The notes under the pieces: model-generated | Databases searched by the model: none | Told to the model about the DNA's origin: nothing | The model's input: the letters and a program-made list of their open reading frames with translations, nothing else | Program-made: the position numbers and the translations under genes | Shown: piece by piece, positions 3,374 to 52,891 of the stretch | Position numbering within the stretch: the first letter of the stretch is position 1 | Layout of the letters: the number at the start of each line of letters is the position of its first letter | Assembly (NCBI GenBank): GCA_023105745.1 | Contig: JALGQZ010000002.1 | Span: 78,323,785-78,387,784, forward strand | From: Austropuccinia psidii | Taxonomy: Eukaryota; Basidiomycota; Pucciniomycetes; Pucciniales; Sphaerophragmiaceae | Reading direction: 5' to 3' | DNA length: 64,000 nt

Positions 3374-4697
3374 CTAGCTATCTCTACCTAATTCATCAAA
3401 AGTTCTTTGAAAATCATTTATCAACTCATCTTCATACCAGGCAAATTTTGCAGCCATCTCTTCAGAAGCAGTACCTGGAATATTCCTGTCATTGGCATAC
3501 ATAATCACCTCTCTGCTGTTTCTATCAACCCTCCTGAATAATCTGGCCACAGCTTCTTGGTTTTCACTAACCGCGTTGGGATCTTCTCTGGTAACCCGGA
3601 TAGGCCAACATTCTCTTCTTTGAAAAACTTGAGCGGCGGAAAATGGCAAAGGCAACAATCCATCTCTGTTTGGCTGGAGCTGGCCACAGGTTGGAGTTGG
3701 TGGGAGGTGGTTATGGGGGAGTTTCTGGATTGCTGAACTGGTGATGGTCTTACTGCTGGATTTGACGCAGGCCTGGAATGGGAAGTACTGGGTGAAGGAG
3801 GAGGAATGGTAGTAGGAATGGAAGCAAGAATTGGTTGTAAGGTTCTGGGAGTACTGGGAATTACTTGGCTTTGAAATCTGTTGGCAAGGGGTTGAGTAGA
3901 GGAATTGCTGGATGGATGGCCAACTGAATGAGGAACAACTTGAACTTCTTCACCATCCAACTCATCACCTCCTTCAGAATCTGGATCAGTGGGGGAATCA
4001 TCAATCCTTCTTACTCTCTTCACTCTCTTCACTACCCCTTCAGTATTGGTCCTTGAGATTGGGACCTCTGAGCTGGAATATATGGGCCTACCACCACCTG
4101 AAATTGGCCCTCCAACACTAGTCCACCTTGCCACATCCCTCTGCCTGGAACCAGTCACTGAATCAAAAGATCAGTACCAATTCAATCAAGATATGCAAAT
4201 CACTCACATTTAGAAAATCCTGAAGTTGCATCAGGAGTAGGTTCCTCAGAGATGGAGAATTCTTGCCCAAAAGGCCCATCCTTTCTACTCCATAAATGCC
4301 TCCTGACGTTAGAAGACATCACCCCGGTACAACGACATGGTTTCTTTCCAATGAAGCAAAAATGGCATTTTGAAGATCAGGGATTGTGGTGTTGAAAACA
4401 ATCCTTACCCTTGGCCAAAAATTCAGTACAGGCAGGATCAAAACCTTCAACTGCTCTGTATCCATCATAAGTTTGGGAGGGATCAAAATGACTAGAAGAA
4501 GTCATGGAGGGAGAAGATAATTGACTGAAGATGCCAGAACCACAAAGAACAGACCGTGGCGGTGCAGAAGGAGAAGATTCAGTGAGTTCAATCAGTTTGC
4601 AACTAATAACTGAAGAATATGCAAGCAGAAGATTCATGACATCAGAATCAGTCCACTTCATATCAAAAAAATTTGACCTCAAGGAAATGGGGGACAT
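3374..4697 (-). pseudogene. R1 antisense gene, Zn2Cys6-like protein, decayed copy
   Basis: This gene lies on the strand opposite to R1 pol, between pol and the 3' LTR. It is the counterpart of the R6 gene at 35711-37036. Exon 1 runs 4697 down to 4208. An intron of 50 bp (4207-4158, GTGAGT...CAG) interrupts it, and exon 2 begins with TGSRQRDVARW. The cysteine cluster region is present, but the second cysteine is Phe (CTEFLAKGKDC) and a TGA follows QHHNP (about 4374-4376). A frameshift lies near 3660, after which the C-terminal part (RRVDRNSREVIMYANDR, ending DELGRDS) continues to 3374. The internal start ATG that R6 has (MTELTES) is CTG-like here (LIELTES). The function is unknown. The cluster suggests a zinc-stabilised nucleic-acid binding protein. 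Confidence 0.72.
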
Positions 4698-6761: not shown

Positions 6762-6769
6762 AAGGCTCA

Positions 6770-11866: not shown

Positions 11867-11916
11867 TAATTCTGGGTCTATTGAGTCAGAACTATCAAAC
11901 CTATTTGTAGGTACAA

Positions 11917-13003: not shown

Positions 13004-13092
13004 TTCAGAAAAGATATTTCAGATTGTATATCAGTATTTTATGATAAAACAAAATGATTATATTCAATTCTACTGTTATTTTTCGAAATTTT

Positions 13093-13138
<46 letters not shown>

Positions 13139-13859: not shown

Positions 13860-13876
13860 CCACGGCCAGGCCCCCA
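13860..13876 (-). promoter_or_regulatory. R2 primer-binding site (tRNA type)
   Basis: On the - strand, three bases after the 5' LTR end, the sequence reads TGGGGGCCTGGCCGTGG. It begins with TGG, complementary to the CCA end of a tRNA. A similar site (TGGGGGCCCAGCCGTGAT) lies at the same place in R7, supporting a shared primer tRNA class. The tRNA was not identified. Confidence 0.65.
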
Positions 13877-13879
13877 AAA

Positions 13880-18525: not shown

Positions 18526-18540
18526 TTATATTAATTAACT
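18526..18540 (+). promoter_or_regulatory. R4 primer-binding site, self-primed type
   Basis: TTATATTAATTAACT abuts the 5' LTR with no spacer. It lacks the TGG start of a tRNA-primed site but pairs perfectly over 15 nt with 18144-18158. In R6 the equivalent site (TTAAATTAATTAACT) matches its own short-form LTR sequence AGTTAATTAATTTAG, allowing one G-U pair, so the two sites vary together. Confidence 0.65.
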
Positions 18541-33592: not shown

Positions 33593-34107
33593 TGTGAGCC
33601 TTGAGGTATATTTTACATACCCAAATACGCAACAATTATCTTAAAAACAAATTCTGAAGTATGCATAACCCATAGGTCATGAATATATTCAAAATTCATC
33701 ATTTTTGATTTCAGAAAAGATGAATAACCTTTTATTGAGTAAGTAAAACCATGGATTTAAGGCCAGATTTGTGTTCTACACAAAACTTCACCTAGGGTAG
33801 CTCCATAAAGTGAATAAGCTAAAATCAACTTTTGAGGTGGTAACATGGAAAATACTTCAATACCACATAAAAGATCTGTGAAAATTTCTGTTTTTTTTTC
33901 AATTTCACGCCAAAATAATGGGATTGTGAGAAATACCACGTTACATATACAGTAAGAATAGTGTTATTCATGTTTTGGGCACTTAATATCATGGTATTCC
34001 TATATGCACTTTTGGTACACCCATAGTGGATATCAGTCTTTAAGGCTTAATCTCTATTTTTGAGGTGAAAGTAGTTAGAGCGGAAAAAATACATCAAAAG
34101 ATCCAGG
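33593..34107 (+). repeat. R3 3' LTR, first part (family C)
   Basis: Starts TGTGAGCCTTGAGGTAT followed by ATACCCAAA, matching the start of the R7 LTR read on its own strand. The remainder has diverged. R6 inserted after CCAGG (34103-34107). Confidence 0.7.
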
Positions 34108-34869
34108 TGTCACAGTGGTTCTTTGAAGTGAAGAGGACCTGGCACTCAGTAAACTGGGACTCACTTATGGAGGGCTCAGGATATGGTAAGAAAGAAATAC
34201 AATTAAGAGTGGTGAAATATGAATTATTAATAAAAGAAATATAGAAAAGCAGCAAAAAAAGAAATAATAGTAAATAATAAAAGAGTCAGCCATAAACAAG
34301 TCCAAGTCCACTGTTTCAACCTGTTGGAATGAAAATAGAAGGGTTAATAAGGATATGGCCACCCAACTCATACTGTACAGGCAAAGAAAGAAAATGCAAA
34401 GACTAACTTAATATTGAATAAATATAATACCCAAAATAAGGATAATAATATTCATTAAATAATAAATAAACTAAATTAATTAACTGGGGGAAAGTCCCCA
34501 GGGGGGAGAAAGAGGGGCTGGTATATGTGAGAATCACCAGCCCTGATCCAGTGAGAGAATTTTCATGAGAGGATTGAATGATTGAATTGAGTCTGGCCAA
34601 TACAGGTACTGTACAGCTGTACAGAGCCTGTAAAAGAGGTGTGGTGGACTTCAGTGATCATACAGTTTCATAATGGTGTATCCAAACTGTATTGGGTGAA
34701 TCCAACCTGTACAGATGTTGACAGGCTGTATTGAAGTACCAAGCTGTATCATTTTTAGCAAGGAAGATTCCTGAAACTGGATGCTGATGCAAATAGTGGA
34801 TCTGCTGATTTGAGGTGTTTGAGTGGGTGTGGTAGTGAATACCCTTACCCCTGGTGAGTGGTTGTTACA
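34108..34869 (-). repeat. R6 3' LTR (family A, short form, 762 bp)
   Basis: Read on the - strand it starts TGTAACAACCACTCACC and ends ACTGTGACA. It includes the CTGGGG/CCCCAG hairpin next to TTAATTAATTTAG, a CTGTACAG cluster, and CCAACAGGTTGAAACAGTG. Confidence 0.92.
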
Positions 34870-35710
34870 GTATCCCCCTCTTGAGACTGGTGGGCTCCTG
34901 AACACCATAATACCGTGCCACCTTTGAGTGGAATCTCAATATCCCCACATTTTTTTCAAAACATTTCTTTTTAATTTTTGTTTCCTCTTGACCATTATCC
35001 TGAAAATCCTTTCCAATTCTTCCCTGTCAAATGAACTTGATTCCCCCCTTCTTTCAATTTTTGAGTAAGTATTCCACTTCAAAATATGCTTCTTTTCTTC
35101 TGATTCAATAAATCTTTTGTCCTTGGGTTGTATCCCAAAATTATGGCCACTGAGCTCTTGTGCTCAAAAAATGATGCCAAATGATTATATGAATGTATAC
35201 TCATTTTTCAAGGCCCAATTGAAAATGCCTTGAAATAAAGTCTTCAAGGGGTCTTATCCTCATTGGCCTTGAAAATGCCTCCATTTGCCTTCCCATAGTA
35301 TTCTGGGCCTTGGCCCTTCCTATGGTTATTCTTGATGAATTTTGGTTTTATGGCCCTTTTGGCCTTTTTTGGGTTTTGGGTGATTTTATTGAGATTTTTG
35401 ATATATGGCCATTTCTGGCCATTTTGGTCTTTTGGGGTCCTATGGTCCATGGGCCGTGGACCATATGCCGCGGTCCGTGGGGGCTATTGGATGCCCCCTG
35501 GGCCCAATTTTGCTGGGGACCCAGGGATTCCATGGGGCCAAAAAATGGCCCATGGTCCAAACTCTCACCTACATGGCCTGGAACCCTTGAGGGGGTCCAG
35601 GACCATCAAGATCCTGGCCTTCCCAAGGCTGCAGAGAAGGCCCTGGGTGATGAATTAAGCCCCAAAGGGGTCTTGAATCCCGACCTTAAAGGCTTTGAGG
35701 GGGGTTATAA
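34870..35710. other. R6 polypurine tract and GC-richer region upstream of the antisense gene
   Basis: Next to the LTR the - strand reads CTCAAGAGGGGGATAC, the polypurine tract. From about 35165 to 35705 the sequence is G/C-rich with many GGCC and CCATGG words and a CCGCGG site near 35470. It corresponds to R1 4698-5243 plus 15387-15659. It lies upstream of the antisense gene and may contain its promoter. A + strand open frame with PPGPNFAGDPGIPWGQ parallels the R1 frame. Confidence 0.55.
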
Positions 35711-37036
35711 ATGAGTTATGGCCCCATTTCCTCAAGGTCAATCTTTTTTTTTGATTTGGAGTGGACTGATTCTGATGTCTTTAATCTTCTGCTTGCATAT
35801 TCTTTAGTTATGAGTTCCAAAATGACTGAACTCACTGAATCTTCTCCTTCTGCACCACCACCATCTGTTCTTTATGCTTCTGGCGTCTTCAGTCAATTGT
35901 CTTCACCCTCCATGGCTTCTTCTGGTCACTTTGATCCCTCCCAAATCTATGACGGATACAGAGCAGTTGAGATTCTTGATACTACCTGTACTGAATGTTT
36001 GGCCAAGGGTAAGTATTGTTTTCAACACTACAATCCCCAATATTCAAAGTGCCATTATTGCTTCAGTGGAAATAAGCCATGTTGTTGTACCTGGGTGCCA
36101 TCTTCTAACATCAGGAGGTATTTATGGAGTAGAAAAGATGTGCTTTTTGGGAAAGAGTCCCCAGTCCCTGAGGGACCTACTCCTGATGGAACTTTGGGAT
36201 TTTCTCAATGTGAGTGATTTTCATATCTTGATTGAAATTGGTACTAATATTTTGATGTAGTGACTGGTTCCAGGCAGAGGGATGTGCCAAGGTGGACTAA
36301 TGTTGGAGGCCCAATTCCAGTTGGTGGTTGGCCAATATATTCCAGATCAGAAGTCCGAATATCCAGGATCAATACTGAAGGGGCAGTGAAAAGAATAAGA
36401 AGGATTGCTGATTCCCCAACTGATCCAGATGCTGAAGGTAGTGATTAGTTGGATGGTGAAAAAATTGAAGTTGTTCCTCATTTGGTTTGCCATCAATCCA
36501 GGAATTTCTCTGCGCAGCCTCTTTTCAACAGATCTCAAAGCCAAGGGATTCCAAGTATTCCCAGAACCTTCCAACCAGTGCTTGCTTCCATTCCTACTAC
36601 AATTCCTCCTTCTTCACCAAGTACTTCCCATGCCACGCCTGCCTTGAATCCAGAAGTAAGACCATCACCAAGCCATCAACCAAGGATCTCACCCATAACC
36701 ACCTCCCAACAACTCCAACCTGTGGCAAGTTCTAGTAGAAGAAGGGATGGTTTGTCTCCTTTGCCTTTTCCTGCCGCTCTAGTTTTTCAAGGAAGAGATT
36801 GTTGGCCTATCCAAATTACCAGAGAAGATCCCAATGCGGCGAGTGAAAACCAAGAAGCTATGGCCAGAGTATTCAGGAGGGTTGATAGGAATAGCAGGGA
36901 GGTGATTATGTATGCAAATGACAGAACTATTCCAGGTACTGCTTCAGAAGAGATGGCTGCAGAATTTTCCTAGTATGAAGATGAATTGATAAATAATTTT
37001 CAGGGAACCTTTGATGATTTAGGTAGAGATAACTAG
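35711..37036 (+). pseudogene. R6 antisense gene: Zn2Cys6-like cluster protein, two exons, two stops
   Basis: Transcribed opposite to R6 gag-pol. Exon 1 is 35711-36209 (ATG at 35711; an internal ATG at 35822 opens MTELTESSPSAPPPS and may be the true start). The intron is 36210-36260 and exon 2 is 36261-37036. Spliced length is divisible by three (424 codons plus stop from the first ATG). Residues 93, 96, 103, 114, 117 and 124 are Cys with spacing CX2CX6CX10CX2CX6C, the pattern of fungal binuclear zinc clusters. A Pro/Ser-rich middle follows, then a conserved C-terminal part (FRRVDRNSREVIMYANDR). Stops at 36446-36448 and 36971-36973 (the latter in place of a Trp codon, inferred from R1) make this copy broken. 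The family is unnamed to me. DNA binding is inferred from the cysteine spacing alone. Confidence 0.75.
36210..36260 (+). other. Intron of the R6 antisense gene (51 bp)
   Basis: GTGAGT donor, GGTACTAAT branch-like site and a TAG acceptor. Removal joins TCTCAAT to TGACTGGT and keeps the frame (SQLTGSR). R1 has the same intron at 4158-4207 with GTGAGT and CAG. Confidence 0.75.
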
Positions 37037-37736
37037 TTTCCTTATTGTTGTTTGTGTTTAGTTTGACTTCTATCCCCATTCTTATAAATACTAAAAAAAT
37101 GAAGAAAAATAAATGGAACATCCCAATACATGACCTGGGAGGGGATGCTGCTGCTTACAAGAAATAAAAGAAAACAAAATTATACAAGTAAATAAAAGAA
37201 ATAAAATGAGAGAAAAAGAGATAAAAGAAATTCCTGATGGTTAGTCCTTCTTGTAGTGAGTTTCTTGATTTTTGGCCAAGAATTGTCTGAAAAATGAATG
37301 ACAAGCATTTGATTCTCACAGAGTGGACAAGGTAATGTTTTACAAGAAGTAGAAGCCTCAGGGATGCATACCAGGAGTTGGAACTTACTTTCATAACTCC
37401 CACTCCCCACCAAGCACCATACAACTGAAATAAATTGCCATAACTGCCTTGAAGTAATTAATATCTTGAATTATGATGATTGGCATAAATTGAAATAATG
37501 ATAAAGAAAAAAGAAAATGAAAAGAAAGAAAGAAACATTTGGCCATATCTTGATAAGGTCCAAATGGAGGGTATTGATGTTGCATGCTTCCTGAACCTGT
37601 CCAAAGAATTGACAAGTGCTCACAAAGTGGCTAAGGTGATGCTTACAACAACATATGGTTAGAATACCCCCTTAAAGGTGCATTCCAGGAGAGGAACTTA
37701 CTTTAATATCTTCTTCTCCCCACAAAGCACCATAAA
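37037..37736 (-). other. R6 3' untranslated region with intron-like units
   Basis: Reversed counterpart of 2641-3370. Donor-like ACTTAC (rc GTAAGT) sites occur near 37387 and 37700 next to rc copies of the GTGCTTGGTGGGG unit (about 37405-37425 and 37715-37735). No gene on the - strand. Confidence 0.6.
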
Positions 37737-38734
37737 TCAAACTCTTGAGGTATTTGGCCCAGGCCTTTCTGGATACAATGAATGGAAATCCTTGACAAGG
37801 TCTGGTGAGTTGGTAACGTTGGAAGTTTTTTCCCAAGTGGTTCTTTCTGCGTCTTTAATGAATCCTTTCCACTCTACAAGATACCATAATTTACCCCTCT
37901 TGAGTTTTGAGTCCAGAACCTGAGACACTTCCCATTCCTCTTGCTCCTCCACTAAGACTGATGGTGGTGGCAATTAATGTCAATTTGGGATAGTTGAATG
38001 CTTCACTGGTTCTAATAAGGACACATGGAATACAGGGTGAACTGACTTACATTGCTGAGGCAACTTGAGGTGATATGCATGGCTACCAATCTTCTTCAGA
38101 ACTTCAAAAGGTCCCAACCCTCTTTCTGATAATTTCTTGGTGGGTCTTGTTGTCTTGATGCTCTTGGAAGCCAGCCATACTTTGTCCCCAGGTTGTAAAT
38201 CAGCTGTAATTGCTCTATTTCTATCTGCATACTTCTTGAATCTACTTATTGCTGACTCTAATTCTTCTTTGAAAACTTTCTCTTGCCTGGGTGGTAAGTG
38301 ATAGTGAAGTGAAATTCAGAAAGAAACTCAGCCCAACGGGCCTGAAAACAAGTAAGAACTTTGGAAGACATAAAATACTGCAGGGAAGAGTGGTCTGTCA
38401 AGACCTCAAAAGAATTTGAAAGAGAGAGAAGAAATTCTCTCCAGTGCTTGAGAGCCCAAACCATGCCAAGGAGTTCCTTGTCATGTATCTCATAGTTTAG
38501 CTCAGCTGGGAGAGGCTTGCGACTATAAAATGCAATGTGATGCTTTCCTGAGTCATTCACCTGGCTCAGTACAGCAACCAAGGCATAATCAGAACCGTCA
38601 GTCTCTACAATAGTAGGTAGAGAAAGATTGAAATGAGATAAGATAGGAGCAGTGCTGAAAGCTTCTTTGAGTAATTGAAACTGGCTAAGAGCTTCCTCAA
38701 TGAAGATTAAGGGAGAATCTTTTTTGAGAAGGGA
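37737..38734 (-). pseudogene. R6 pol, 3' part: RT end, RNase H, integrase end, chromodomain
   Basis: The chromodomain (37973-37737, WYLVEWKGF) and integrase C-terminal part (to about 38285) are preceded directly by RNase H sequence (38581-38285, GAVLSQ-like start, SRKPLPAELNYEIHDKELLG). Compared with R1, about 1.09 kb is missing between the RNase H end (FTITYHPG) and the segment before EELESAI, which removes the integrase zinc finger and catalytic core. From 38581 to 38734 the RT end is broken. R7 begins at 38735 after AGGGA. Confidence 0.88.
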
Positions 38735-40571
38735 TGTATGGTGTGGATACGAAACTTTGATTAAAAATCAAGTACTTTTCCTGTCCTCAAAATTTGTATA
38801 AGGTAAAAATCAATTAAAAATACTAAGAAATATTATTTTTAAGAGAAGACACGCCTATTTTATTGTTTATGACTTTATTAGTATAAAACAATAATATTAT
38901 AAAGATTTATTGTTTTACCAACAATAAAAATATATCCAAAAATACTCTACAAGAGATATTTAAGGCTACAAAAGAAATTTCTTCAAGAGCAATTTCAATT
39001 GAAATTAATTGAGCAAAGAGCTGCAAGCAATTAATTCAAGAACAAAGTCTTTAAAAAGAATATTAAAGAGATAACAACCCAAAAGTGTCCAGAGTGAATT
39101 TTTAAACAAAGTGACAAAATTAACAGTATTGAAAGATGCTTTAGTTCACTTTTGGGGTGGTTCAGGGGTAAAAATGATTATAAGAGTTACAAAAAATTAT
39201 TGGAATGATTTTTTCACATGGTTAAAAGGTTTAAAGTGATTTAAAAAAATGTGATTTGAATCTTTTATTGATTGGTTCAACAGTGTTTAAAGTAATTATA
39301 AAAGGAAAAGATTCTAACATGAAGAGAAAAGTGGGGCAAAGAAGACATTCTTTTATAGCCATCACTTTTCTTACTCCAAAAGTAGAATTTAATCTTGTCA
39401 GTCGTGAAAAACAGTCTGACAACATAAAAGCCAATTATGGCATCAGTGAACCCTGGTTTAGACCAAAAAAGGGCTGGCTTAAGCCATTTTTTGATCTCTT
39501 TAGCCATTTTAGACCCTTAAATCAGCCATTACTATAGCAATACCTGGTCTAGAGTCTTCAAAGCACGTCATAATGTGTGTAAGATGCGTAGAAACCAGTT
39601 GAAACTGTTTTTACTAACAATGCTTTAACTTAAGTGTAGTTTTACCCTCTTGGCAGCAGTTAAAACCCCCCTGGTTGGTATCCAAACCTCATCATCAATT
39701 GAGTCACTGACGCTGTGACTCAATTCCACGCCAAAAGTAATGAACTTTTGCATGGATCTTGACATCCCACACCAGTCAGCAAGGATTTTGGGGGTCTGGC
39801 TCCCCCTTAGAGCTAGAGTTCCTTTTCCCCCCCAATTTTAATCTTTCCAATTTATTTTTTCCTTTAATTCCTCATCATGAATTATACTTATAATTCACAT
39901 ATGTAATTCAATTGAATTTTACAGTACAATACAGTAATAATTAATACCTCATATTTAAATCAGAGTTCACTAATGTAATACATGTGCACATTGTGACATT
40001 TCAATTGAATTCAATTGAAAATACTTCAATTGCTCATAACTTCTAAGCTAAACACAACACCTCAATTTTAAAACGAAAATTGATGGTTAACATCACATGT
40101 GGTGTGAATTAAATTAAAGTTTTGAGGATTTTCAATTTTTCTATTGAAAATACTAAAAACTTAATCTAAGCTTACTTAGAGTTGAGTTACAAAAATTTCA
40201 CTCAGAGGTGACCCCACCTAATTTTTTATGAGGAATCAAATGGTGAAATAAATTTTACATGTTTATTTATTGGATAAGAAGTTATAATATATTTTATATA
40301 AGTTTTTACCAAAAATATCTTGATTTCATAAATTTTATTAAAAATTCATTTTTACTTAACTTTTACAAGTAAAAATGAATTTTCATAACTTTAAATTTTA
40401 TTGTAATTTTATTTTTAAATTATAATTAAATTTTGATTTTTAGATATAAATTTGTATTTATGCTTCATTCTTTTATTTTTACAATATAAATAAACTTATT
40501 TTATTTATATTTGTATCTTAATTTATCATTTGTGGTCTTTTGGGTATATAAAAATACCTCTAAGGCTCACA
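38735..40571 (-). repeat. R7 3' LTR (family C, 1837 bp)
   Basis: On the - strand starts TGTGAGCC. On the + strand it begins TGTATGGTGTGGATACGAAAC. It holds a paired AATTGAGTCAC / GTGACTCAATT inverted repeat (39697-39725), a CAATTGAATTCAATTG palindrome near 40005 and CACATGTGGTG near 40096. It contains about 350-370 bp (about 39000-39355) missing from the 5' LTR. Confidence 0.88.
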
Positions 40572-40589
40572 TTCCCTCCCCCTAAAAAA

Positions 40590-43500
40590 ATATTATTACT
40601 TTGTAATATTATTATTTATAGTGTGCCTGAACCTTCTGAGAAGCTTAGTAGCTTCAGGTATGTCTTTTTCTGGCAACCATTCATCTTCACAAGCTGGGTC
40701 ACTGTACCTAACAAGGTATTCCCTTACTTTTTTAGTTCTTAATTCCCTTTCTTTAAGAACTTAGGTTATATTCTTAATATCAGATGTCTCAATAGGAGGT
40801 ATAACTTGGGGAACTTTATTCCTCAAGGGGAACTTTTTAGAATCACTAGATCTATATGGCTTTATCAAGATCACTGGAAATGTAGGATGCTTATTACTAA
40901 GTTCTTCAGATAGTTCTACTTCAACAGAATTTTCTCCATGGAGGGCCTTAATAACAAAAGGTCCTGCAAAGGAGTTCTCCAGATTTTTACATCCTTTGAT
41001 GTTATTGAAGTTAGTGGTGGATACAAGAACTAAGTCCCCCACTCTGAAATCTGACGTTGCATGTGATTTATCCCATTTGTCCTGAGCATATGCAAAAGAG
41101 TCCTCCATGTACCTTACTGCATGCTTTCTAGCTTTGTCTAGCATTCCTTTGAAGCTTGGAGCTGTGGGATGTATTTCAATCAAGTCTTTCCTCAAGGAAT
41201 CTTGTGGTGATTTGGGGTTCCATCCTTTTTCTAGGATAGCAGGAGTTTGATTGGTACTGGTATGGATTGATGTTTTATATGCTAATTCTAGTGCTGGTAA
41301 CAGAGTACACCAATCATGGGTGAATCAATCACAATCTTTGAATTCAAGGCCATATGCACAAAATCTTCTTACTATGTCCTCTAAAGTTTGGATGATCCTT
41401 TCAGCCAGACCATCAGTTTTTGGGTGGTAGGCTGTAGAGAAAGACAGCTTAGTGCCAAATAATTGGTGAAGATTTGCCCATCGTGCTGAAGTGAGTTTGG
41501 CATCCCTATCACTAATGATATTTGTAAATATGCCAGTCCATGACACTACTCTATTCCATATCAGAAGAGCTGTATCCATGGCTGTATCATCCTTGTGGCA
41601 TGGTAAAAAAATTGGAGTTTTACTGAATCTGTCCACAATCACTAGGCAAGCATTATGACTTCTGTCACCTCCTGGTGGTAGGCCAGTTACCCAATCCATA
41701 TGGACAATTTCCCAAGGTCTGCTTGGTTCTTGGATTTTTATCATATTTCCAAGTCTCTGGCCAGTGAATGTATTGGCGTTTTGACATCTGTCACAGGTTT
41801 TGCAATACTCTGCAACATCATTCTGCCACATTGGCCACCATATACAGTTTTTCACTTTTTCTCTAGTTCTGTCTTCAGATAAATGTCCTGAGAAGGGGCT
41901 GTCATGGCATTCTTTCAGTACAAGATTGATTAATGACCTGTCCACAACTGTCATGACATATGTGTGCTTAGTTCTGTGGTAAATTATACCATCCAGTAGG
42001 TGAAATCTTCCTTCATCATAAGATTTCTTCCATACTTCATTCAAGGCATGTATGAGAGAGCTGTCTTTAAAGTCCTTGTTAATTAATTTGCATAAGATGC
42101 TACAATTCTTATCTTCAGTGTAACTGTGTCTCACCTCTCCAAAGAATGTGGTGTTTAAGTCTGTAACACTTATTCCTTCTATTGGGATCTGTGGTGAAGC
42201 TTCTTCTGGAACATAAGAAGGATTATCAATATTTTTTGGTAATGGCCATCTGCTCAGTCCATCTGCATTCTTATGAATATTCCCATCCTTATTAACAATA
42301 GTCATATTTCCTCTGTATTCTTGTATGGCTATTTGCCATCTGAGCATATGTCTGTTGGGTGTTTTCATGTGTAAAAGTGATTTGACAGCTGTACCATCTG
42401 TTATCACCTCAAAAACACATCCCTCCCAGAAGTACTTCAATTTTTTCAAGGCCCAGACAAGGCATAGACATTCCATTCGACTTGCTCGATATCTGGCTTC
42501 AGTTGGTTTGATTTTCCTGGATATGAAACATATGGGTCCTTCCACAGGTTTATCATTTATGATCTGAACTTGGTGAAGTGCAGCACCCAGCCCATCCCCT
42601 GATGCATCAATATACAATTTGAATGGCAATTTAAAGTCTGACATCAGTAATAGTGGAGCAGTGGTCAAGGCTTCTCTTAGAGACTCAAAAGCTTTGACTC
42701 TGTCAATGGTAATTTCAAAAACTGTGTCTTTGTCACACAATTTATAAAGTGGTCTTTCTATGGATGCAAAATCATTAATGTGTTGCCTGTAATATCCTGC
42801 AAATCCTAAGAATTACTAAATTTTGTTTTTGTTCTGAGGCATGGGTTTTAGCAATACTGTTGCAACTTTGTTTTTGTCAATTCCAAGCGACAAACCAGAT
42901 ACAACATGTCCTAGTGCCTTAAGTTCTTTAAATCCAAAACTGAATTTCTTCAAGGATATTTTCATGTTTACTGATTGAAGTTTTGTCAAAGCTCTGGAAA
43001 ATCTGTACATGTGCTCTTCCCAAGTCTTGGAACAGACAATAATGCCATCAATGTAAATGATTAACCATCCCTCTGAAAGTTCTTCAGGGAAGATTTCATT
43101 CATCATTCTTTGGAAGTGTGAAGGTGCATTTTTGATACCAAAGGGCATCCTTAAGTATTCATACACTCCACAATGAATAATAGTTCTCAAGTATTTTCTT
43201 GCTCTTGGTGTAACCACATTTTGATGGAATCCTTTAATGGCATCCATAGTGGTTATATACACTGCTTGAGATATTGGAGTAAGGGCAATTTGGATTCTTG
43301 GTATTGGGTATCTGTCTGGAACAGTGTAAGTGTTCAGAGCTCTAAAGTACCCAGCCATTCTAGATTTTCCATTATGCCATGCCACTATGACTGGTGTAGT
43401 TATTTCTACTTCTTCATTGTGGCCTACTTTCATTATTACACCAAGGTCCAGAAGTTCTTTGATATGAATTTCTAGAGCTTCTCTTGATTTTCAACTTGCT

Positions 43501-43898
43501 GGATATGCAGGTCTTCTTAAGAGTGGTGGATAAGGTCTCTCCATGTTAAGAATGATGTCACCTTCATGACCAATAATTTCCCCTATGGGTTCTTTATCTG
43601 AAGCAAATGCTTCTTTATGGTTATATAAAAGACTAGAGAGTTCATTTTCTTGTGAATTAGTCGGATGAAGGCTTATTTCAGCTTCATTTAACTGTTCAGA
43701 CTTGAATTTCTCTAACTCTAATTTTACTGGTGATACTTTGTTCAATGTAATTTGTCTTTTAAATGGTAAAAAGGCAAATTTTTGGTGCTTATTGTCTCCA
43801 ATAGTAAAGTATCTGTCTTTTTTGTTATGTAAATCTATCCCATACATGATTAAATAGTCATTTCCCAATATAAAATGGGTACTAAAGCAGTTTTCCAT
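40590..43898 (-). pseudogene. R7 pol: RT, RNase H, integrase, divergent chromodomain
   Basis: The RT part (43898-42816) has FGIKNAPSHFQRMM and YIDG at 43044-43055, where the family motif is YIDD, so a catalytic Asp is lost. Stops lie at about 43491, 42816-42821, 41325 and 40761. RNase H starts at [15 protein letters not shown] (about 42605). The integrase shows [44 protein letters not shown] and [11 protein letters not shown]. The last part (REYLVRYSD, DEWLPEKDIPEA, 40760-40600) matches the chromo-like ends of R2 and R3. From 42740 to 40761 the frame is the same with one stop. Confidence 0.92.
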
Positions 43899-43907
43899 AA
43901 CAAAAGA

Positions 43908-44270
43908 TCAAACTGTGATTCTTAAATTCCCATTAATGTGTGGGAATATTACATTGGTCTCAAAAATTCCCAATGCTTTCTTTGGATTACTTGCACTATT
44001 GAATTTTATACCATAAATCGGTAACAATTGGTCTTCAAACTTTGGTACACAAGTCTTAAGAAAAGATTTTCCAACACAAGAGCAGACAGCTCCTGGGTCA
44101 AGCAAAAGCTTTGTGGGCTTGTTGTCAATCACCACTTCTGCTATACAGGAGTTACCAGCTGTATAACCTTTCCCTCTGTTTGGTTTGGTTTTCATGAGTT
44201 GTGCATCTTGAACTTTTGATAAATCAAGTTGACCATTGCTCAATTGTGGCAAGTGGGAATAAGATTCCAT
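43908..44270 (-). pseudogene. R7 protease region
   Basis: Shows KLLLDPGAVCSCVGKSFL aligned with R2 MIIDTGASCSIV, so the second active-site residue is Pro. A stop at 43908 separates it from the RT part (43898). Upstream it continues from gag in the same frame region. An aspartic protease with DPG is not expected to work. Confidence 0.8.
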
Positions 44271-44294
44271 GATGTCAAAAGTGGAATTGATATT

Positions 44295-45743
44295 TTATAT
44301 ATATTTTGAAGATTCAGAAAATATGGATGACTTATCATCTGAATTGTCTTCAATTATGTCATCTTTTTCAACATTGGGTTCCTTTTCAATATAAGTTTCA
44401 TTGATTTCCCCCCTTTTTGGACATGTATTGGCTAAATGGGTGGTGCTTTGGCAAATATGGCACTTTCTGACTGTATCTGCAGATTTATACTTATTATTAG
44501 AATTTGCTTTGGGGTTTTTGTCCACAGAATCTTTCCAAGGTGTGTTAAAACTTGTTTTGAGATTCATACTACTAGAACCAATTTTGGTTCTGGTGGTTGC
44601 TTCTTCTAATATATTGATAATATCCTCTGCTGAAGATTGTTCAGTAGTCCTGCTTTTGACAGCATGCCCTAAGTCACCTCCAAATTGTCTCAGAATCTTT
44701 CTATGGATCATAAATTCTGACATGTCAGGATATAATGCTGTTAATCTGTCTTTTTGTTGGCAAAACCATGGTAAAGCTTTGTCTTGATCAGCATTAAATT
44801 TGGCAGATTCAAAGGCTGTTTCCACTCCAAACCTCCAAGCATCATTGGCCCATTTGTTGATAATTTGGGTTTTCCACCAAGTCCAACTTTGGTGTCCATG
44901 TGCTTGTCTCAATTTGATATACCATCTGTTAGCTGATTTGGTAACTAAGGTGTTAAACCTGGCTTTTACCAATCTGTCTGGTAGTTCAAAGTCTTCTTTG
45001 ATCATTTCAATACCTCTGATGAATTCCATATGGTCATACTTTCCTTCACCACTGATGTGAGGCCATTCCTTAAGTTTTGGAACTTCTTTCAAGAGTGCTT
45101 GGCCCATTGTTGGTTCCAAGTTATGAAAAGAAGTAGAAAATTCATTTTTTAATTGAGAATTTTCAATATCCAATACTTGTGTATTGGGAATCCCTGTACC
45201 CTCATTTTGATTCAGAGGTGTGGACATTCTTGGTAAGGTGTTTAGTAGTTGTTCAATATCATTCATTTTACTATTGTTACACCTTTGTGAATTTCTTAAT
45301 TCATGTTTTAAGCTTTGTATAGAGGTTATTACATTCTTTTTAGAATCATCCTCTTTATATGTCAGCTCATTCCATAATTCTGTTGATTTAGTATTATCAG
45401 ATATAACTTCATTTAGCTTTATTGTTAATTTTGATATTTCCTCTTTTGAGGTATCAAAACACTTTTTCAAGGCAATTATATGTGTCTTTACTTCATTAAA
45501 TGATTTTGAAATATCATCAAGAGCTTTCTTATTATCTTCTTTGATATTATTTATTGCTTGTTGAATTCTTGTTTCAATTATATCATCAATATTGAATTTA
45601 GAATATTTGTCTGTCAATTCCTTAATAATGGCAGATTGTTCATTTATCTTATTGCCAAAAGAATTATCATTATTGGAAGTTTTAATTGTTCTTAAAACGT
45701 TTTCAAAACATTGAAGTGTTTCATTGATTTGGCTCAGACTCAA
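44295..45743 (-). pseudogene. R7 gag
   Basis: The N-terminal ~170 residues are Lys/Glu/Asn-rich with coiled-coil character. The capsid-like part (from WPHISGEGKYDHMEFIRG to LTALYPDMSEFM) matches R2 (WPKFSGIGEYDHMEIIDY). A CCHC knuckle, CHICQSTTHLANTC, lies at about 44425-44465. No ATG opens the long frame (it runs open from a TTG-like position at 45743), so the true start may lie upstream or be lost. A stop near 44295 separates it from the protease. Confidence 0.88.
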
Positions 45744-45808
45744 GTTATGTGTTTAAAGATTGTCACAAATTGATGCATTTTTATCAGAAAGATGACTTTT
45801 TACGTCAG

Positions 45809-46769
45809 TTATAGCTTCATACAACTCTGGAATAGAATCAAAAATATCAGAAGTAATTTCTGATATTTTAATCTGGCCTCCTCTTTCTTTTGTAGTTCCA
45901 TCATTGTTCTGGCCATCTGAAACACATTTTCCATGGCATCCTGTAGCCCTGGCTGTAAGGTTTGGTGGCTGGTGCCTTTCCTTTGATCTTGTTCAGAGCT
46001 TGTGGCTGCTTTTTCACGTTGGAATTGCTGCTGCTGGCCACTGGGGCTGTTTTTGGCACTTGCTTGGGTGGTGGAGGGTTGTTTTTCCTCCATTCTAGTG
46101 TCAAGAGCATCATGTTTTTCCTCTCCATCAATGGAGGCCATCCATTGAGAAATTTGCAAGTATTGGGATGACCCAACAATTTTCTCACAGTCAGGTAAGA
46201 ATTCATGCAGTTTTTCCACAGATCTGAAAGGATCTGGTACTCCTTGTACTGCAGGGCATTGTTGTATGGTTTGTGGCTGGCTTTGTATATGTCTACTGAG
46301 GCTTCTTGTGGCGGTTTCAGCTCTTTGTGAAGGTAAAATGGTATTATCAGCATCAGAATGACCTATTTTAGTTGTTTGGAAGTCATCAAATGACCCTTTT
46401 CCTTCTGTACCTGGTTTGCGTTGGCCATAATCATGTCTATTACCTTTCTGGGAGCTGCTTGAGGGGTTATAGCTGGCTCCCAATCTGGTTGAAGGCATAT
46501 TTTATGATTAAAAAGGCTGAAAGTAGTATTTTTACGTTAAAAAACTTACTATTGGCCAAATTCTTAGCTTTCTGAAGGGTATTACTTATATCCAAGTTAA
46601 TCAATTCAGAAGATATTGGTTCAGGTTGGTTATTTTGAGTCACAATAGCAGTACTATTATGGTCTGAATTAACAGTACTGGCAGGAATAATGCTGGTGAC
46701 TGTCAAGGCTGTTTCAATGATTTCTTGTTTTACCAAGTTGTCAGACACTAAAGTTAATGAAAAAGCCAA
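45809..46769 (-). pseudogene. R7 upstream ORF (two parts)
   Basis: The first part (46769-46548) contains ISSELINLDISNTLQKAKN and ends at a GTAAGT donor (+ strand ACTTAC near 46550). The second (46498-45809) opens with MPSTRLGASYNPSSSSQKG; a shifted frame (46353-45901) carries MNSYLTVRKLLG and PPPKQVPKTAP, and the first frame resumes with MENVFQMARTMMEL. It corresponds to the R2 two-exon upstream ORF and to R3 27324-27927. The acceptor of the intron is not clear. Function unknown. Confidence 0.55.
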
Positions 46770-46953
46770 TTAATTAAGTGAAAAAAGGTTATTTCAAAAA
46801 AAGAAATAAAAATATAAGCCTCACTTATGATATGAAAAAAATTATTTTTTATGGTTTTTTTTTAATCATAAGTTTTTTTATATGTTTTTTTAAAATTTTT
46901 CAATATAGGAAAAAAGGTTCAAAGAAGATTAAAAAATTTTTCACAGGTAAAAT
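46770..46953 (-). other. R7 leader
   Basis: A/T-rich, no gene. On the - strand a TTTAG acceptor-like site precedes TGTCTGACAACTTGG near 46750, parallel to the CTCTAG site in R3 and the GAATAG site in R2. Confidence 0.5.
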
Positions 46954-46971
46954 ATCACGGCTGGGCCCCCA
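46954..46971 (-). promoter_or_regulatory. R7 primer-binding site (tRNA type)
   Basis: On the - strand two bases after the 5' LTR the sequence reads TGGGGGCCCAGCCGTGAT, beginning with the TGG that pairs with a tRNA CCA end. It resembles the R2 site. Confidence 0.65.
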
Positions 46972-46973
46972 AG

Positions 46974-48439
46974 TGTAAGGTGTAGATATGAAACTTTGAT
47001 TAAAAATCAAGTACTTTTCCTGTCCGCAAGATTTGTATAAGGTAAGAATCAATTAAAAATACTAAGAAATATTATTTTCAAGAGAAAACACGCCTATTTT
47101 ACTGTTTATAGCTTTATTAGTATATAAAAAGAATATTATAAAGATTTATTGTTTTACCAACAATCAAAATATATCCAAAAATACTCTACAAGAGATATTT
47201 ATGGCTACAAAAGAAATTTCTTCAAGAGAAAGTTCAATTGGAAGCCATCAATTTTCTTACTCCAAAAGTAAAATTTACTCTTTTAAGTCGTGAAAAACAG
47301 TCTGACAACAGAAAAGCCAATTATGGCATCATTGAACCCTGTTTTAGACCAAAAAAGGGCTGGTTTAAGCCATTTTTTGATCTTTTTAGCCATTTTAGAC
47401 CCTTAAATCAGGCATTACTATAGCAATACCTGGTCTAGAGTCTTCAAAACACGTCAGAGTGTGTGTAAGATGCGTAGAAACCAGTTGAAAATGTTTTTAC
47501 TAACATTGTTTCAACTTAAGGGTAGTTTTCCCCTCTTGGCAGCAGTTAAACCCACCCTGGTTGGTATCAAAACCTCATCATCAATTGAGTCACAGACCCT
47601 GTGACTCAATTCCAGGCCAAAAGTAATGCACTTTTGCATGGATTTTGACATCCCATGCCAGTCAGCAAGGATTTTGGGGGTCTGGCTCCCCCTTAGAGCT
47701 AGAGTTCCTCCCCCCCCCAATTTTAATCTTTCCAATTTATTTTTTCCTTTAATTCCTCATCATGTATTATACTTATAATTCACATATGTAATTCAATTGA
47801 ATTGTGCAGTACAATACAGTAATAATTCATACCTCATATGTAAATCAAAGTTCACTTATGTAATACATGCGCACATTTTGACATTGCAATTGAATTCAAT
47901 TGAAAATACTTCAATTCCTCATAACTTCTAAACTAAACACAACACCTCAATTTTAAAGCAAAAATTGATGGTTAACACCACATGTGGTGTGAATTAAATT
48001 AAAGCTTTGAGGTTTTGCAATATTTGTATTGAAAATACTAAAAACTTAATTTAAGCTTATTTAGAGTTGAGTTACAAACATTTCCCTCAGAGATGACCCC
48101 ACCTAATTTTCTATCAGGAATCAAATGGTGAAATAAATTTTATATGTTTATTTATTGGATAAAAAGCTATAATATATTTTATATAAATTTTTACCAAAAA
48201 TATCTTGATTTCATAAATTTTATTAAAAATTCATTTTTGCTTAATTTTTACAAGTAAAAATGAATATTCATAATTTTAAATTTTATTGTAATTTTACATT
48301 TAAATTATAATTAAATTTTGATTTCCAAATATAAATTTGTATTTATGTTTAATTTTTTTATTTTTACAATATAAATAAATTTATTTTAATTTATCATTTG
48401 TGGTCTTTTGGGTATATAAAAAAACCTCTATGGCTCACG
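46974..48439 (-). repeat. R7 5' LTR (family C, 1466 bp)
   Basis: Matches 38735-40571 except for the missing internal segment. On the + strand it begins TGTAAGGTGTAGATATG and ends GGCTCACG, where the last base has changed from A. A perfect inverted repeat ATTGAGTCACAG-ACC-CTGTGACTCAAT spans 47584-47610. Confidence 0.92.
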
Positions 48440-48444
48440 AGGGA

Positions 48445-50049
48445 AGTGCAAGCAGTGATTTTTTTAGAATAATTTTTTATGAAATGACGATAAAAATTGG
48501 CAAAGCCGAAAAAAGATTGAAGAGCCTTGATGTTTTTGGGCTGAGGCCAATTGAGGATTTGCTGAACCTTTGAAGAATCCGTCTTGAGGCCATCACTTGA
48601 AACAACATAGCCCAAGTATTCCACACTTGAAGCATGGAATACACACTTGGAGGCTTTGGCAAAAAAATTATTGTCCCTCAGTCTTTGGAGGCCAGAGGCC
48701 ACATGTTTGACATGTTCCTCCTCAGAATTGGAAAAGACCATAATATCATCTAAATAAACTACAACAAACACATCCAAAAAAATTTGCAAATATATCATTC
48801 ACAAGATTCTGGAAAGAGGCTGGAGCATTGATAAGGCCAAATGGCATAACCAAATACTCATAACTACCAAATTTGGTTCTAAAGGCAGTTAAGTGCTCAT
48901 CCCCCTCTTTGATTCTCAGGAGATTATATGCACCACACAGATCTATCTTGGAGAAGATAGTAGAACCGTTGAATACGGTAAGGAGCTGGTTCATAGGAGG
49001 AACAGGATACCTGTTCTGCCTAGTGACAGCATTGAGTTTGTGGTAGTCAACACACAAACGAAGACCTTCATCCTTTTTATTAACAAAAAGGACAGGTGCT
49101 CCTGTTGAAGAGGAGCTTAGCCTTATGAAATCTTTCTCTACATTCTGTAAAATGTAGGCCCGTAGTGTTTCTGACTCTTGATTTGATAATGCATAGATAA
49201 CACCAACTGGAGGTAAAAGACCCTCCAATTCAATATGATGATCACAGACGCGGTGTGGAGGAAGTTTCTCTGCTTTTGCCTTGGAGAATAAATCCAAATA
49301 TTGGTGATAAACAGGAGGGACTACCTTAAACACAGTTTCAATTTCTTCTGGCTCTTCCTCCGAATCCCACTGCTCCTCCAGGGAGGCATGAAAAGACACG
49401 GGAGGAAGGTCCATATCCCATTGAAAGAGATGAAGTGAAGATATAGCAACATCTTCTCCAACATCGTTTATCTCTTTGAAGACTTCATCTCTTAATTGAA
49501 GTAATTACTGAGAGGGAATTATGGAAGGGAAGGTGTCTTAAGTTCACAAACCAGAGCAACACTGTTGACAGAAGTGGAAATGCCATTACTAGTAGAAGGA
49601 ATAATACCACTAGAATCCTTATGACTAGAATCATAGGTGATCAATCCATTTTTCCAATCAATAATGGGATTAAAATGGTAAAGGAAATAATAGCCCAATA
49701 TCAGGTCTTCTCCCTTGGGTGAATCTATGATAAAGAAGTCCCATTCAAAGCTTTTCAAGGAAGGCAAGTCAACTACCCACTTGGTATAATGGGTGATTAA
49801 CAAGGCAGGGGATTCATTAGAATCCAGAATGAAAAGAGGAGTCTTTCCAGGGAGCTTTGACATAGTCAATGAGTACTTGAGAACAAAATTCATTGCAATA
49901 GAAGAGTTTGTAGCACCAGAATCAATGAGAATACTATAAAAAGTATCAGAGAGAGAAGAGAAAATAACAAATTTTAAAGATTTCTTGACACTAGTATTCA
50001 GAGTGCACAATTGTGCTCTTGAAGGAAATAAGTGAGAACCATTGAACAC
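48445..50049 (-). pseudogene. R6 pol, 5' part: protease and RT
   Basis: Protease (50049 to about 49519) carries LIDSGATNSSIA. A stop and frame change separate it from the RT part (49414-48746, with LRLCVDYHKLNAVTRQNRYP). A frameshift in a T-run near 48780 precedes the YLDDIMVF part (48798-48445). The reading continues after R7 at 38729 with LLKKDSP. R7 is inserted between KKITACTSL and LLKKDS. Confidence 0.9.
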
Positions 50050-50063
50050 ATCATGATCCCCAC

Positions 50064-51425
50064 TCAGGATTTTCCCTGCATGCTAGGGAAGCCTCTTGAT
50101 GATGACCCAGGCTTGTTCTGAGTTCTCTTGAAGAATTTTTCAATTGGCTGCTTTCCACCACAATAAGTACACAACCCCTCTTTAATCCTCCTCTCCTTTT
50201 CAGAACCAATTAATTCATTGTCCTTATTGAGGAGATTAGCATGAGGTTTGTCCTTTGAAGATTGAAACTGCTTGCCCTTCTTATTCCTCTTTTTGTGAGA
50301 CCTCTTTGGAAATGAGTTTTGAGGAGGCCTTGATGGATTGGATCCATTAACAGGAGGCTTCTTCTGTTGATTGCCACCCTTTTTGTTTTGCCTCTCATGA
50401 TATCTTGTGTCTAATTCTAAAGTGACATCCATAAGCTCTTGAACAGTGTCAAAGGTTCCAGGGTGAGAAGCCAGATGATCAAATACTCTTGATGCCAATC
50501 CTCTTCTGTAAACATGGATATAAGCTCTTTCCCCCCAATCTCCAATTCTTGACATTAAGCTTCTCAAATCAGCAATGTACAAGGATACATGACCACTTTC
50601 CTTCATCCTCAAATTGTCCAACTCTTGTTCAGATTTCCTGACTTCATTGGGGTCAATAAACAGAGTGAATAGTTGGGATTCAAATAATGGCCAATTATTG
50701 AGGAGATCAGAAGGGTCTTCATTGGAGATATTTGAGAGATAGGGTTCAATCCACATTCCAGCTCTACCAGTGGGAAACACAGTTGAGTATAGAACTTTCT
50801 TCCTGTCAGAGAAGAAATTTGCTGGATTATTATGGAAGATTAATTGACAGGATTGGATAAATACTCTCAATTTATGAGCTTGAGTACCATCAAAAGGATC
50901 AGGTGCCTTCATGGATGGAGTTTTGAAAGCAGTGGATTTGGAATTGTCCCTGGGGGCAACTGCGTGAGTCAGCTTCCCCATGAATTGAGTCATTTTCTCT
51001 ATCATCTTGAGGAGACTTGGGTCAGTTTGAGAGACAAGAGGTTGACTAGAAATGGTTAGATTAGAGCCCTGAGGCACTTCAGGAGCATTTGCCAAGGCAT
51101 ATTCCACTTCAGTCTCCCCACAATCTTCCTCTTTGACAGACTCTTCCCCCTCTTCATCTTCAACTTCCCCTAATCTTGCTCTTGCACCTTCAGACATGCC
51201 AGAGTAGCCACCCAAAAGTCCAGATAAGGATCTTGATCTTCTAGATTTCATTCAATCTCTTCTTGAGGGTTCTTCCCCTTCCATTGGTGGTCCTCTGTCC
51301 AAGTTTGCACTCAGTTGATGAACTGATGGTGTGCGGTCAAGAGGAGCCCTTTCTGTAGGAGTGAGAACAGCTGGAATTCTTTGGGAACTAGTGTTCTTGA
51401 CTGGGGGACTATGCTGAACTGGCAT
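50064..51425 (-). pseudogene. R6 gag
   Basis: Starts MPVQHSPPVKNTSSQR at ATG 51425. One in-frame TGA at 51252-51254 interrupts it, after which the frame continues (MKSRRSRSLSGLLGGYSG) to 50064. It has the family pattern: acidic stretch, capsid-like region with AFKTPSMKAPDPFDGTQ and MWIEPYLSN, basic C-terminal part and a degraded knuckle (CTYCGGKQPIEKF, with His and last Cys lost). Otherwise it is the most complete family A Gag in the window. Confidence 0.9.
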
Positions 51426-52107
51426 TATGAACAGAAGTAGAATGAAAACTTGATGGTATTGAGAACAGAAATCAAATCTTGGCCAAATCAATCACAATAA
51501 GAAACTTGATGAGTCTTGAGGAATCAATTCAATTCTTTAGGTGAAAACAACTTCAATCAATAATCAATCAATTCAATCAATAATCAACAATAAATTCAAA
51601 TTCAAAGTCAATAATCTTGAAGAATGAAATAAACAATCAGTAAATGAATCAATCAACCAATGTTTTCAAAGTCAATTCAAGGTCTTGAGGAATCAATCAG
51701 TCAATCAATATCTTCAGGAATCTAAATCAATCAACAATCAATAATCAATTCTTGAGGATAAATAAGTTATCTTGAGGAATTCAAAAGTTGATCAAATCAA
51801 TCCAAAGAAAATCCTGAATTGCTGAATCAATAACCCAAATGAATGCCAATCAATCAACCAATCAATAACCAATCAATAACTCCTGATAAGACCTGAATAG
51901 AAAAACAGAGAGAAATTTGATTGAAATAAAATGAAGTGAAATGAGATGGTCAGCAATGATTAAGAAAAATAGAAAGAGTCATTTTTTATATGAATGAAAT
52001 GAATGAGATGAATATTGATGAGAGAAATATCATAAGATCATTAAAGAGTCATAATTGATGAATGAGAGAAATGAATATAAATTAATGAAAAGAAAGAATC
52101 AAATATG
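51426..52107 (-). other. R6 leader, low complexity
   Basis: Rich in AATCAATCAATC words on the + strand, corresponding to the R4 leader. No gene. Confidence 0.7.
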
Positions 52108-52122
52108 AGTTAATTAATTTAA
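52108..52122 (-). promoter_or_regulatory. R6 primer-binding site, self-primed type
   Basis: On the - strand TTAAATTAATTAACT follows the 5' LTR without a spacer. It pairs with AGTTAATTAATTTAG in the 3' LTR copy (14 Watson-Crick pairs and one possible G-U) and with the slightly mutated site in the 5' LTR. Confidence 0.6.
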
Positions 52123-52886
52123 TGTCACAGGGGCTCTTTGAAGTGAAAAGGGCCTGGCACTTAGTAAACTGGGACTCACTTATGGAGGGCTCAGGATATG
52201 GTAAGGAAGAAATACACTTAAGAGTGTTAAAATATGAATTACTAATATAAGAAATATAAGAAAGCAGCAACAAAAGAAATAAGAGTAAAGAATAAAAGAG
52301 CCAACCACAAACAAGTCCAAGTCCACTGTTTCAACCTGTCAGAATGAAAAGAGAAGGGTTGATAAGGATATGGCCACCCAGATCATACTGTACAGGCAAA
52401 GAAAGAAAATGCAAAGACTAACTTAATATTGAATAAATATAATACCAAAAATAAGAATAATGATATTCATTAAATAATAAATAAACTAAATCAATTAACT
52501 GGGGAAAAGTCCCCAGGGGGGAGAAAGAGGGGCTGGTGTATGTGAGAATTACCAGCCCTGATCCAGAGAGAGAATTTTCATGAGAGGATGGAATAATTGA
52601 ATCGATTCTGGCCAATACAGGTACTGTACAGCTGTACAGAACCTGTACAAGAGGTGTGGTGGAGTTGAGTGATCATACAGTTTCATAATGGTGTATCCAA
52701 GCTGTATTGGGTGAATCCAACCTGTACAGATGTTGACAGGCTGTATTGAAGTACCAAGCTGTATGCATGTTTCAGCAAGGAAGATTGCTGAAGCTGAATG
52801 CTGATGCAAATAGTGGATCTGCTGATTTGAGGTGTTTGAGTGGGTGTATCAATGAATACCCTTACCCCTGGTGAGTGGTTGTTACA
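52123..52886 (-). repeat. R6 5' LTR (family A, short form, 764 bp)
   Basis: Matches 34108-34869. Tips on the - strand are TGTAACAACC and CCCCTGTGACA. Duplication CCAGG follows at 52887-52891. Confidence 0.92.
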
Positions 52887-52891
52887 CCAGG

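What the first reader, a model, noticed from the sequence alone, without database searches (positions are those of the whole stretch)
35711..37036. Retrotransposon carries an antisense gene with a perfect Zn2Cys6-type cysteine pattern
Seen: opposite to R6 gag-pol, between pol and the 3' LTR, a two-exon frame has six Cys spaced CX2CX6CX10CX2CX6C (residues 93-124), a Pro/Ser-rich middle and a conserved C-terminus. Known: this spacing is the signature of fungal binuclear zinc cluster DNA-binding proteins. Inferred: the element may have captured a regulator acting on its own LTR or on host genes. Accessory antisense ORFs are known in some plant LTR elements. I know of no described fungal chromovirus with a Zn2Cys6 antisense gene.
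Basis: partly seen in the sequence, partly recalled or inferred. Interest (0 to 1): 0.9.

Follow-up and report, generated by a model that had tools for sequence, protein, structure and literature searches.

The report
Antisense six-cysteine gene in rust retrotransposon
A jumping element in what looks like the myrtle rust fungus carries an extra, backwards-facing gene with a conserved intron that selection appears to have preserved, and its six-cysteine motif hints at a metal-binding regulator, although membership in the known fungal zinc-cluster family could not be shown.

Summary
The observation largely holds. R6 is a complete chromovirus insertion (LTRs 34108-34869 and 52123-52886, CCAGG target duplications, chromodomain). 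Between pol and the 3' LTR it carries a two-exon frame on the opposite strand, with a 51-nt GT-AG intron and CX2CX6CX10CX2CX6C. This copy is dead: two premature stops. Its start is probably 35810, not 35711. A second, also broken, copy lies at 3374-4607.

The gene is real. Between the two copies dN/dS is 0.47 (bootstrap 0.34-0.68), against 0.97 and 1.04 in the shifted frames. Searches returned 285, 1023 and 625 database proteins; the 120 listed of each are all Austropuccinia psidii MF-1. Of 175 gene models covering the junction, 152 remove the same intron.

The Zn2Cys6 reading is unproven. The spacing is beyond chance (5 of 200,000 shuffles), but Pfam Zn_clus matched none of 61 members, the recalled PROSITE signature none of 223, and structure models were low-confidence. 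The cysteines are no better conserved than neighbouring residues; the clearest constraint is C-terminal.

Antisense extra genes are known in plant elements and in Botrytis Boty, so this is a new variant. A regulator acting on LTRs, which carry CTGTACAG arrays, is plausible but inferred.

The parts
34108..52886 (-). R6, a complete chromovirus LTR retrotransposon with a nested LTR element (about 38735-48438) inside pol
   Evidence: LTR pair, TG..CA ends, identical 5-nt flanks CCAGG at 34103-34107 and 52887-52891; nested LTR matches
34108..34869 (-). R6 3' LTR, with four CTGTACAG palindromes at 34373, 34609, 34617, 34707
   Evidence: 7.0% divergence from the 5' LTR over 762 aligned sites; palindromes
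52123..52886 (-). R6 5' LTR, with four CTGTACAG palindromes at 52388, 52624, 52632, 52722
34870..34885 (-). polypurine tract next to the 3' LTR
   Evidence: read by eye
37737..38767 (-). 3' part of pol: RNase H, SH3_Tf2-1, chromodomain; stop codon 37737-37739; the stretch holds further in-frame stops
   Evidence: Pfam RT_RNaseH 1e-31, SH3_Tf2-1 5.2e-23, Chromo 1.1e-9, frames, stop
35810..36209 (+). antisense gene, exon 1 (probable start codon 35810)
   Evidence: start shared by 97 of the first 120 listed homologues; frame
35987..36082 (+). six-cysteine motif CX2CX6CX10CX2CX6C
36210..36260 (+). 51-nt intron of the antisense gene
   Evidence: GTGAGT donor, TACTAAT branch-like site, TAG acceptor; donor and AG kept in the second copy; 152 of 175 junction-covering gene models join the exons exactly here
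36261..37036 (+). antisense gene, exon 2, with premature stops at 36446-36448 and 36971-36973
   Evidence: dN/dS 0.38, C-terminal part 0.24
34870..35809 (+). upstream region of the antisense gene (G+C-rich 35390-35700, TATAAA at 35706), rich in GGCC and GGWCC palindromes; candidate promoter
   Evidence: GGCC 17 against 6.3 expected, GGWCC 8 against 2.0, 0 of 200 shuffles each
3374..4607 (-). second, broken copy of the antisense gene, in another element of the window
   Evidence: alignment and tblastn

Best explanation
The frame is a decayed copy of a real accessory gene belonging to a chromovirus family of a rust fungus, most likely Austropuccinia psidii. The gene lies antisense between pol and the 3' LTR. 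It is probably transcribed from its own promoter in the G+C-rich, TATA-containing stretch between the LTR and the gene, and spliced once. Its intron survives retrotransposition because it faces against the genomic RNA and cannot be spliced from it (inference from element biology). The protein (about 390 aa) has an N-terminal six-Cys, probably metal-binding module followed by basic residues, a Pro/Ser-rich linker, and a conserved C-terminal pair of predicted helices. Most likely it is a nuclear nucleic-acid-binding accessory factor that modulates the element's own expression, with the CTGTACAG array in the LTR as a candidate target. Shown: the gene, its position, the splice signals, the purifying selection and the LTR array. 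Inferred: transcription, metal binding, nuclear action, and any link between protein and array. My confidence by step: real gene 0.9; metal binding 0.6; regulator of its own LTR 0.35.
For: dN/dS 0.474 (bootstrap 0.34-0.68) between the two copies, 0.97 and 1.04 in shifted frames, true frame lower in 497 of 500 resamples against each. 285, 1023 and 625 database hits in three searches, the 120 listed of each all A. psidii MF-1. 152 of 175 junction-covering models share the intron. Cys spacing in 5 of 200,000 shuffles. C-terminal helices at block pLDDT 59-85. R6 LTRs: 14 CTGTA/TACAG half-sites against 1.7-1.8 expected and 4 palindromes against 0.01; no excess in the scanned gag-pol stretch 48440-52123, the antisense gene or its upstream region.
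Against: Nothing ties the protein to DNA. The LTR array is also enriched in an LTR family (5243-6745) whose element has no antisense gene (16 half-sites against 4.1), so a host factor could be the binder. The Cys region shows no measurable constraint between the two copies (0.95 on 11 changes), and cysteines are lost independently: all six kept in 76 of 230 proteins against 0.328 expected. Both models are low-confidence over the motif. No transcript was seen; 21 of 223 gene models read into the intron and end there. The minus frames of the same stretch give 0.72, 0.63 and 1.02, so some of the low ratio may be compositional. pol pieces of the same copies scatter widely (0.62, 0.92, and 0.34 or 0.63), which shows how rough two-copy ratios are.
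Confidence: 0.45

Rival explanations
1. The protein is an accessory factor that acts on RNA or particles (chaperone, nuclear export or assembly), not a transcription regulator; the six-Cys module is a zinc knuckle or ribbon-like fold.
For: The C-terminal helices are the clearest conserved part; the exon-1 model shows one helix and short strands rather than two helix-strand halves, at low confidence.
Against: No convincing Pfam match to a nucleocapsid or RNA-binding family in 61 members; the 11 families listed have best E-values of 0.035 or worse.
Confidence: 0.25
2. The element captured a host Zn2Cys6 transcription factor.
For: Exact spacing; profile alignment of exon 1 with six solved zinc clusters lines up all six Cys in register; ordinary spliceosomal-type intron.
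Against: Zn_clus 0 of 61, recalled PROSITE signature 0 of 223, profile probability 4.8-6.4%, in the first comparison over 15 columns only and out of register, no excess over Cys-fixed shuffles, no convincing solved-structure relative by sequence, best E 0.4.
Confidence: 0.12
3. The antisense transcript, not the protein, is what acts: it pairs with the 3' part of the genomic RNA and dampens the element.
For: Position and orientation; the same proposal is made for plant elements in PMC7264820 (passages).
Against: Codon-level constraint is not expected for a non-coding role.
Confidence: 0.1
4. The frame is a recent passenger or a chance open frame without function.
For: Both window copies are broken.
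Against: dN/dS; hundreds of annotated relatives, with the same intron in 152 of 175 junction-covering models.
Confidence: 0.05

Closest known systems
Boty / brtn, antisense gene of a Botrytis cinerea chromovirus (Zhao et al. 2011; seen only as cited in passages of PMC7264820, PMC8365987 and PMC4227169)
   Same: fungal chromovirus, additional antisense gene; PMC7264820 lists it among genes between pol and the 3' LTR
Retand / TRP28 antisense ORFs of plants (PMC11963269, passages read)
   Same: antisense, between pol and 3' LTR, proposed DNA-binding regulator
   Different: non-chromovirus plant lineage; TRP28 domain, not matched by any of 61 members here
Grande gene23 and other plant aORF-3R (PMC7264820, passages read)
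   Same: position and orientation; in Grande an upstream promoter and a nuclear product
   Different: no six-Cys motif mentioned in the passages read
Fungal Zn2Cys6 proteins such as Gal4, Ppr1, Put3, Hap1, Leu3
   Same: cysteine number and spacing
   Different: no profile match, conserved basic residues between Cys 2 and Cys 3 missing, fold not shown

Membership tests
Fungal Zn2Cys6 (Zn_clus, PF00172) | six Cys spaced CX2CX6CX5-12CX2CX6-8C | tested here: met
   window copy; 76 of 223 proteins keep the loose pattern; 5 of 200,000 shuffles
Fungal Zn2Cys6 (Zn_clus, PF00172) | match to the Pfam profile | tested here: not met
   0 of 61 members of A1 at E up to 10, with HMMER filters on; 61 of the 223 proteins held then were scanned
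Fungal Zn2Cys6 (Zn_clus, PF00172) | residue signature between the cysteines (PS00463, recalled) | tested here: not met
   0 of 223 proteins
Fungal Zn2Cys6 (Zn_clus, PF00172) | similarity to known clusters beyond the Cys positions | tested here: not met
   30% of Cys-fixed shuffles score as high, 71 intact proteins tested; hhalign probability 6.4%, out of register, and 4.8%, in register
Fungal Zn2Cys6 (Zn_clus, PF00172) | two helix-strand halves around two metal ions | tested here: inconclusive
   motif at block pLDDT 34-44 in one model and 50-61 in the other, one helix only; no structural match
Fungal Zn2Cys6 (Zn_clus, PF00172) | zinc and DNA binding | not testable with these tools
   needs experiment
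Antisense additional ORF between pol and 3' LTR (aORF-3R) | position and orientation | tested here: met
Antisense additional ORF between pol and 3' LTR (aORF-3R) | constraint similar to that on pol | tested here: met
   0.47 for the gene; pol pieces of the same copies 0.62 (RNase H, stop-free), 0.92 (SH3-chromodomain, 35 changes, three stops in each copy), 0.34 or 0.63 (RT, frame not fixed by stops); rough, the pieces scatter
Antisense additional ORF between pol and 3' LTR (aORF-3R) | present in most copies of the family | tested here: inconclusive
   2 of 2 R6-type elements in the window; the genome search did not complete
Antisense additional ORF between pol and 3' LTR (aORF-3R) | own antisense transcript | not testable with these tools
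   no RNA data
Chromovirus (Ty3/Gypsy) | chromodomain at the end of pol | tested here: met
   PF00385 E 1.1e-9 above its cut-off; SH3_Tf2-1 upstream
Retand TRP28 antisense protein | TRP28 domain PF04195 | tested here: not met
   not among the 11 families matched by 61 members

The most novel reading that the evidence does not exclude
A retrotransposon family that runs its own transcription control: a spliced antisense gene encodes a zinc-cluster-like, symmetric DNA-binding protein that recognises the CTGTACAG array in the LTR and switches the element on or off, a Tat- or HBZ-like loop in a fungal chromovirus that may have helped it spread to at least hundreds of annotated copies in a rust genome.
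Probability: 0.15. Interest if true: 0.85.

Novelty: new variant of a known kind. Interest (0 to 1): 0.5.

Why it matters
The A. psidii genome reaches a gigabase mainly through Gypsy elements (PMC8063080, passages). An element family with its own conserved regulator would give one concrete reason why some families burst. It would also extend antisense accessory genes, known mainly from plants and retroviruses, to a rust chromovirus with a new domain. Practically, at least 307 annotated 'hypothetical proteins' of A. psidii MF-1, and probably over a thousand (1023 hits), belong to this transposon gene and should not be counted as host genes.

Full report
What is there. R6 is a complete LTR retrotransposon on the minus strand. 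Its LTRs (34108-34869, 52123-52886) begin and end TG..CA, the identical 5-nt sequence CCAGG flanks both ends, and the LTRs differ by 7.0% over 762 sites. The end of pol carries RNase H, the Tf2-type SH3 domain and a chromodomain at E 1.1e-9, so it is a chromovirus. A second LTR element (about 38735-48438) sits inside pol.

The antisense gene. Between the pol stop (37737-37739) and the 3' LTR the + strand holds a two-exon frame. The start is probably 35810, where 97 of the first 120 listed database relatives start; 16 start upstream and 7 downstream. The intron 36210-36260 has a GTGAGT donor, a TACTAAT branch-like site and a TAG acceptor; the second copy keeps GTGAGT, TACTGAT and CAG. The Cys motif lies at 35987-36082. 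The frame is broken by stops at 36446-36448 and 36971-36973, and the second copy (3374-4607) is broken too.

Is it a gene? Between the two copies, dN/dS is 0.474 (bootstrap 95% 0.34-0.68). The two shifted frames give 0.97 and 1.04, and the true frame is lower in 497 of 500 resamples against each. The three minus frames give 0.72, 0.63 and 1.02, so composition lowers the ratio somewhat, but the true frame is the lowest of six. Exon 2 is the constrained part (0.38), its C-terminus most (0.24); exon 1 is at 0.76. Both copies decayed after insertion: taking the R6 LTR divergence as a guide (3.5% per copy, assumed equal for the other copy), the ratio before insertion would be about 0.27, a rough estimate. 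As a yardstick, three pol pieces of the same two copies give 0.62 (RNase H, stop-free in both), 0.92 (SH3-chromodomain, 8 synonymous and 27 other changes, three stops in each copy) and 0.34 or 0.63 (RT, where stops do not settle the frame). The gene falls inside that range, which is wide.

How widespread. Three protein searches returned 285, 1023 and 625 hits. Only the best 120 of each are listed, 307 different proteins, all named Austropuccinia psidii MF-1. The window fits that species: G+C 36.1%, CpG observed/expected 0.14, against 33.8% G+C and CpG depletion reported for A. psidii (PMC8063080, passages). The assignment is inferred. Of 307 proteins, 68 span both ends of the 388-aa reference; of 175 that cover the exon junction, 152 have exactly the junction expected if the same intron is removed. 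Against this, 21 of 223 models read into the intron and end there. These are gene predictions, not transcripts.

Zn2Cys6? For: the spacing is exact, and 5 of 200,000 composition shuffles of exon 1 contain it. Against: Pfam Zn_clus matched 0 of 61 members; a PROSITE-type signature, recalled from memory, matched 0 of 223; against a profile of six solved clusters, Cys-fixed shuffles reach the real score 30% of the time over 71 intact proteins; profile comparison gave 6.4% probability over 15 columns that pair the first half of the motif with the second half of the known clusters, and 4.8% with all six Cys in register. AlphaFold2 gave the motif block pLDDT 34-44 in the full-length model and 50-61 in the exon-1 model, with one helix and three short strands. 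Structure searches found nothing. The motif may be a metal site of another kind. I do not file it as Zn2Cys6.

Do the cysteines matter? Each is the majority residue (0.75-0.92), but 76 of 230 proteins keep all six, which is what independent loss predicts (0.328). Their mean conservation, about 0.82, equals that of the whole stretch 59-93 (0.819), and the Cys stretch shows no constraint between the two window copies (0.95 on 11 changes). Many of these proteins probably come from dead copies (inference), so this neither supports nor excludes a role in active ones. The residues after the sixth Cys vary between C, R and H, as expected if Arg codons with CpG were deaminated (inference), so the CCC of the window copy is probably decay.

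A possible target. The R6 LTRs each carry four CTGTACAG palindromes and 14 CTGTA/TACAG half-sites (1.7-1.8 expected, 0 of 500 shuffles); 12 of the 14 lie within the first 271 nt of the 5' LTR in element orientation. All 13 CTGTACAG in the window lie in LTRs or LTR-like copies (0.54 expected). The scanned gag-pol stretch, the antisense gene and its upstream region show no excess. An LTR family of an element without an antisense gene is also enriched (16 against 4.1), so the binder may be a host protein. The upstream region of the antisense gene has its own excess of GGCC and GGWCC.

Mechanism. The anatomy (N-terminal Cys module, basic residues, Pro/Ser linker, C-terminal helical pair) and the precedent of nuclear antisense products in plant elements and retroviruses (PMC7264820, PMC11963269, passages) make a nuclear regulator the best guess. 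RNA- or particle-directed accessory roles remain open.

Novelty. Antisense genes between pol and the 3' LTR are known in plants and, in fungi, in Boty of Botrytis. A six-Cys antisense gene in a rust chromovirus was not found in the literature searches listed under Tried and rejected. I rate it a new variant of a known kind.

Noticed in passing
34108-34869, 52123-52886, 15660-16438, 6173, 14809, 58710: CTGTACAG palindromes, 13 in the window against 0.54 expected, all inside LTRs or LTR-like copies of at least two LTR families.
   Followed up: partly
A. psidii MF-1 proteins P0001-P0307, Cys columns: 150 of 232 Cys losses are to Phe, which needs G to T, against 22 to Tyr (G to A). His to Asn and Ala to Glu are also common at some columns. 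A mutation bias or a sequencing artefact of that assembly.
   Followed up: partly
35101-35500 and its counterpart upstream of the second copy (about 4900-5243): The stretch upstream of the antisense gene is only 57-66% alike between the two copies, while the gene is about 86% and the RNase H part of pol 90% alike; modules may have been exchanged between lineages.
   Followed up: no
5243-15381: Young nested LTR element (LTRs 98.9% identical) with uninterrupted frames of 1063 and 680 aa; no antisense gene by tblastn.
   Followed up: no
17079-27318: Related chromovirus, about 76% alike in pol, without a trace of the antisense gene by tblastn; an internal LTR-like piece at 20163-20607 suggests a composite.
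   Followed up: no
61362-61823: Two tandem copies of a 231-nt unit, 91% identical.
   Followed up: no
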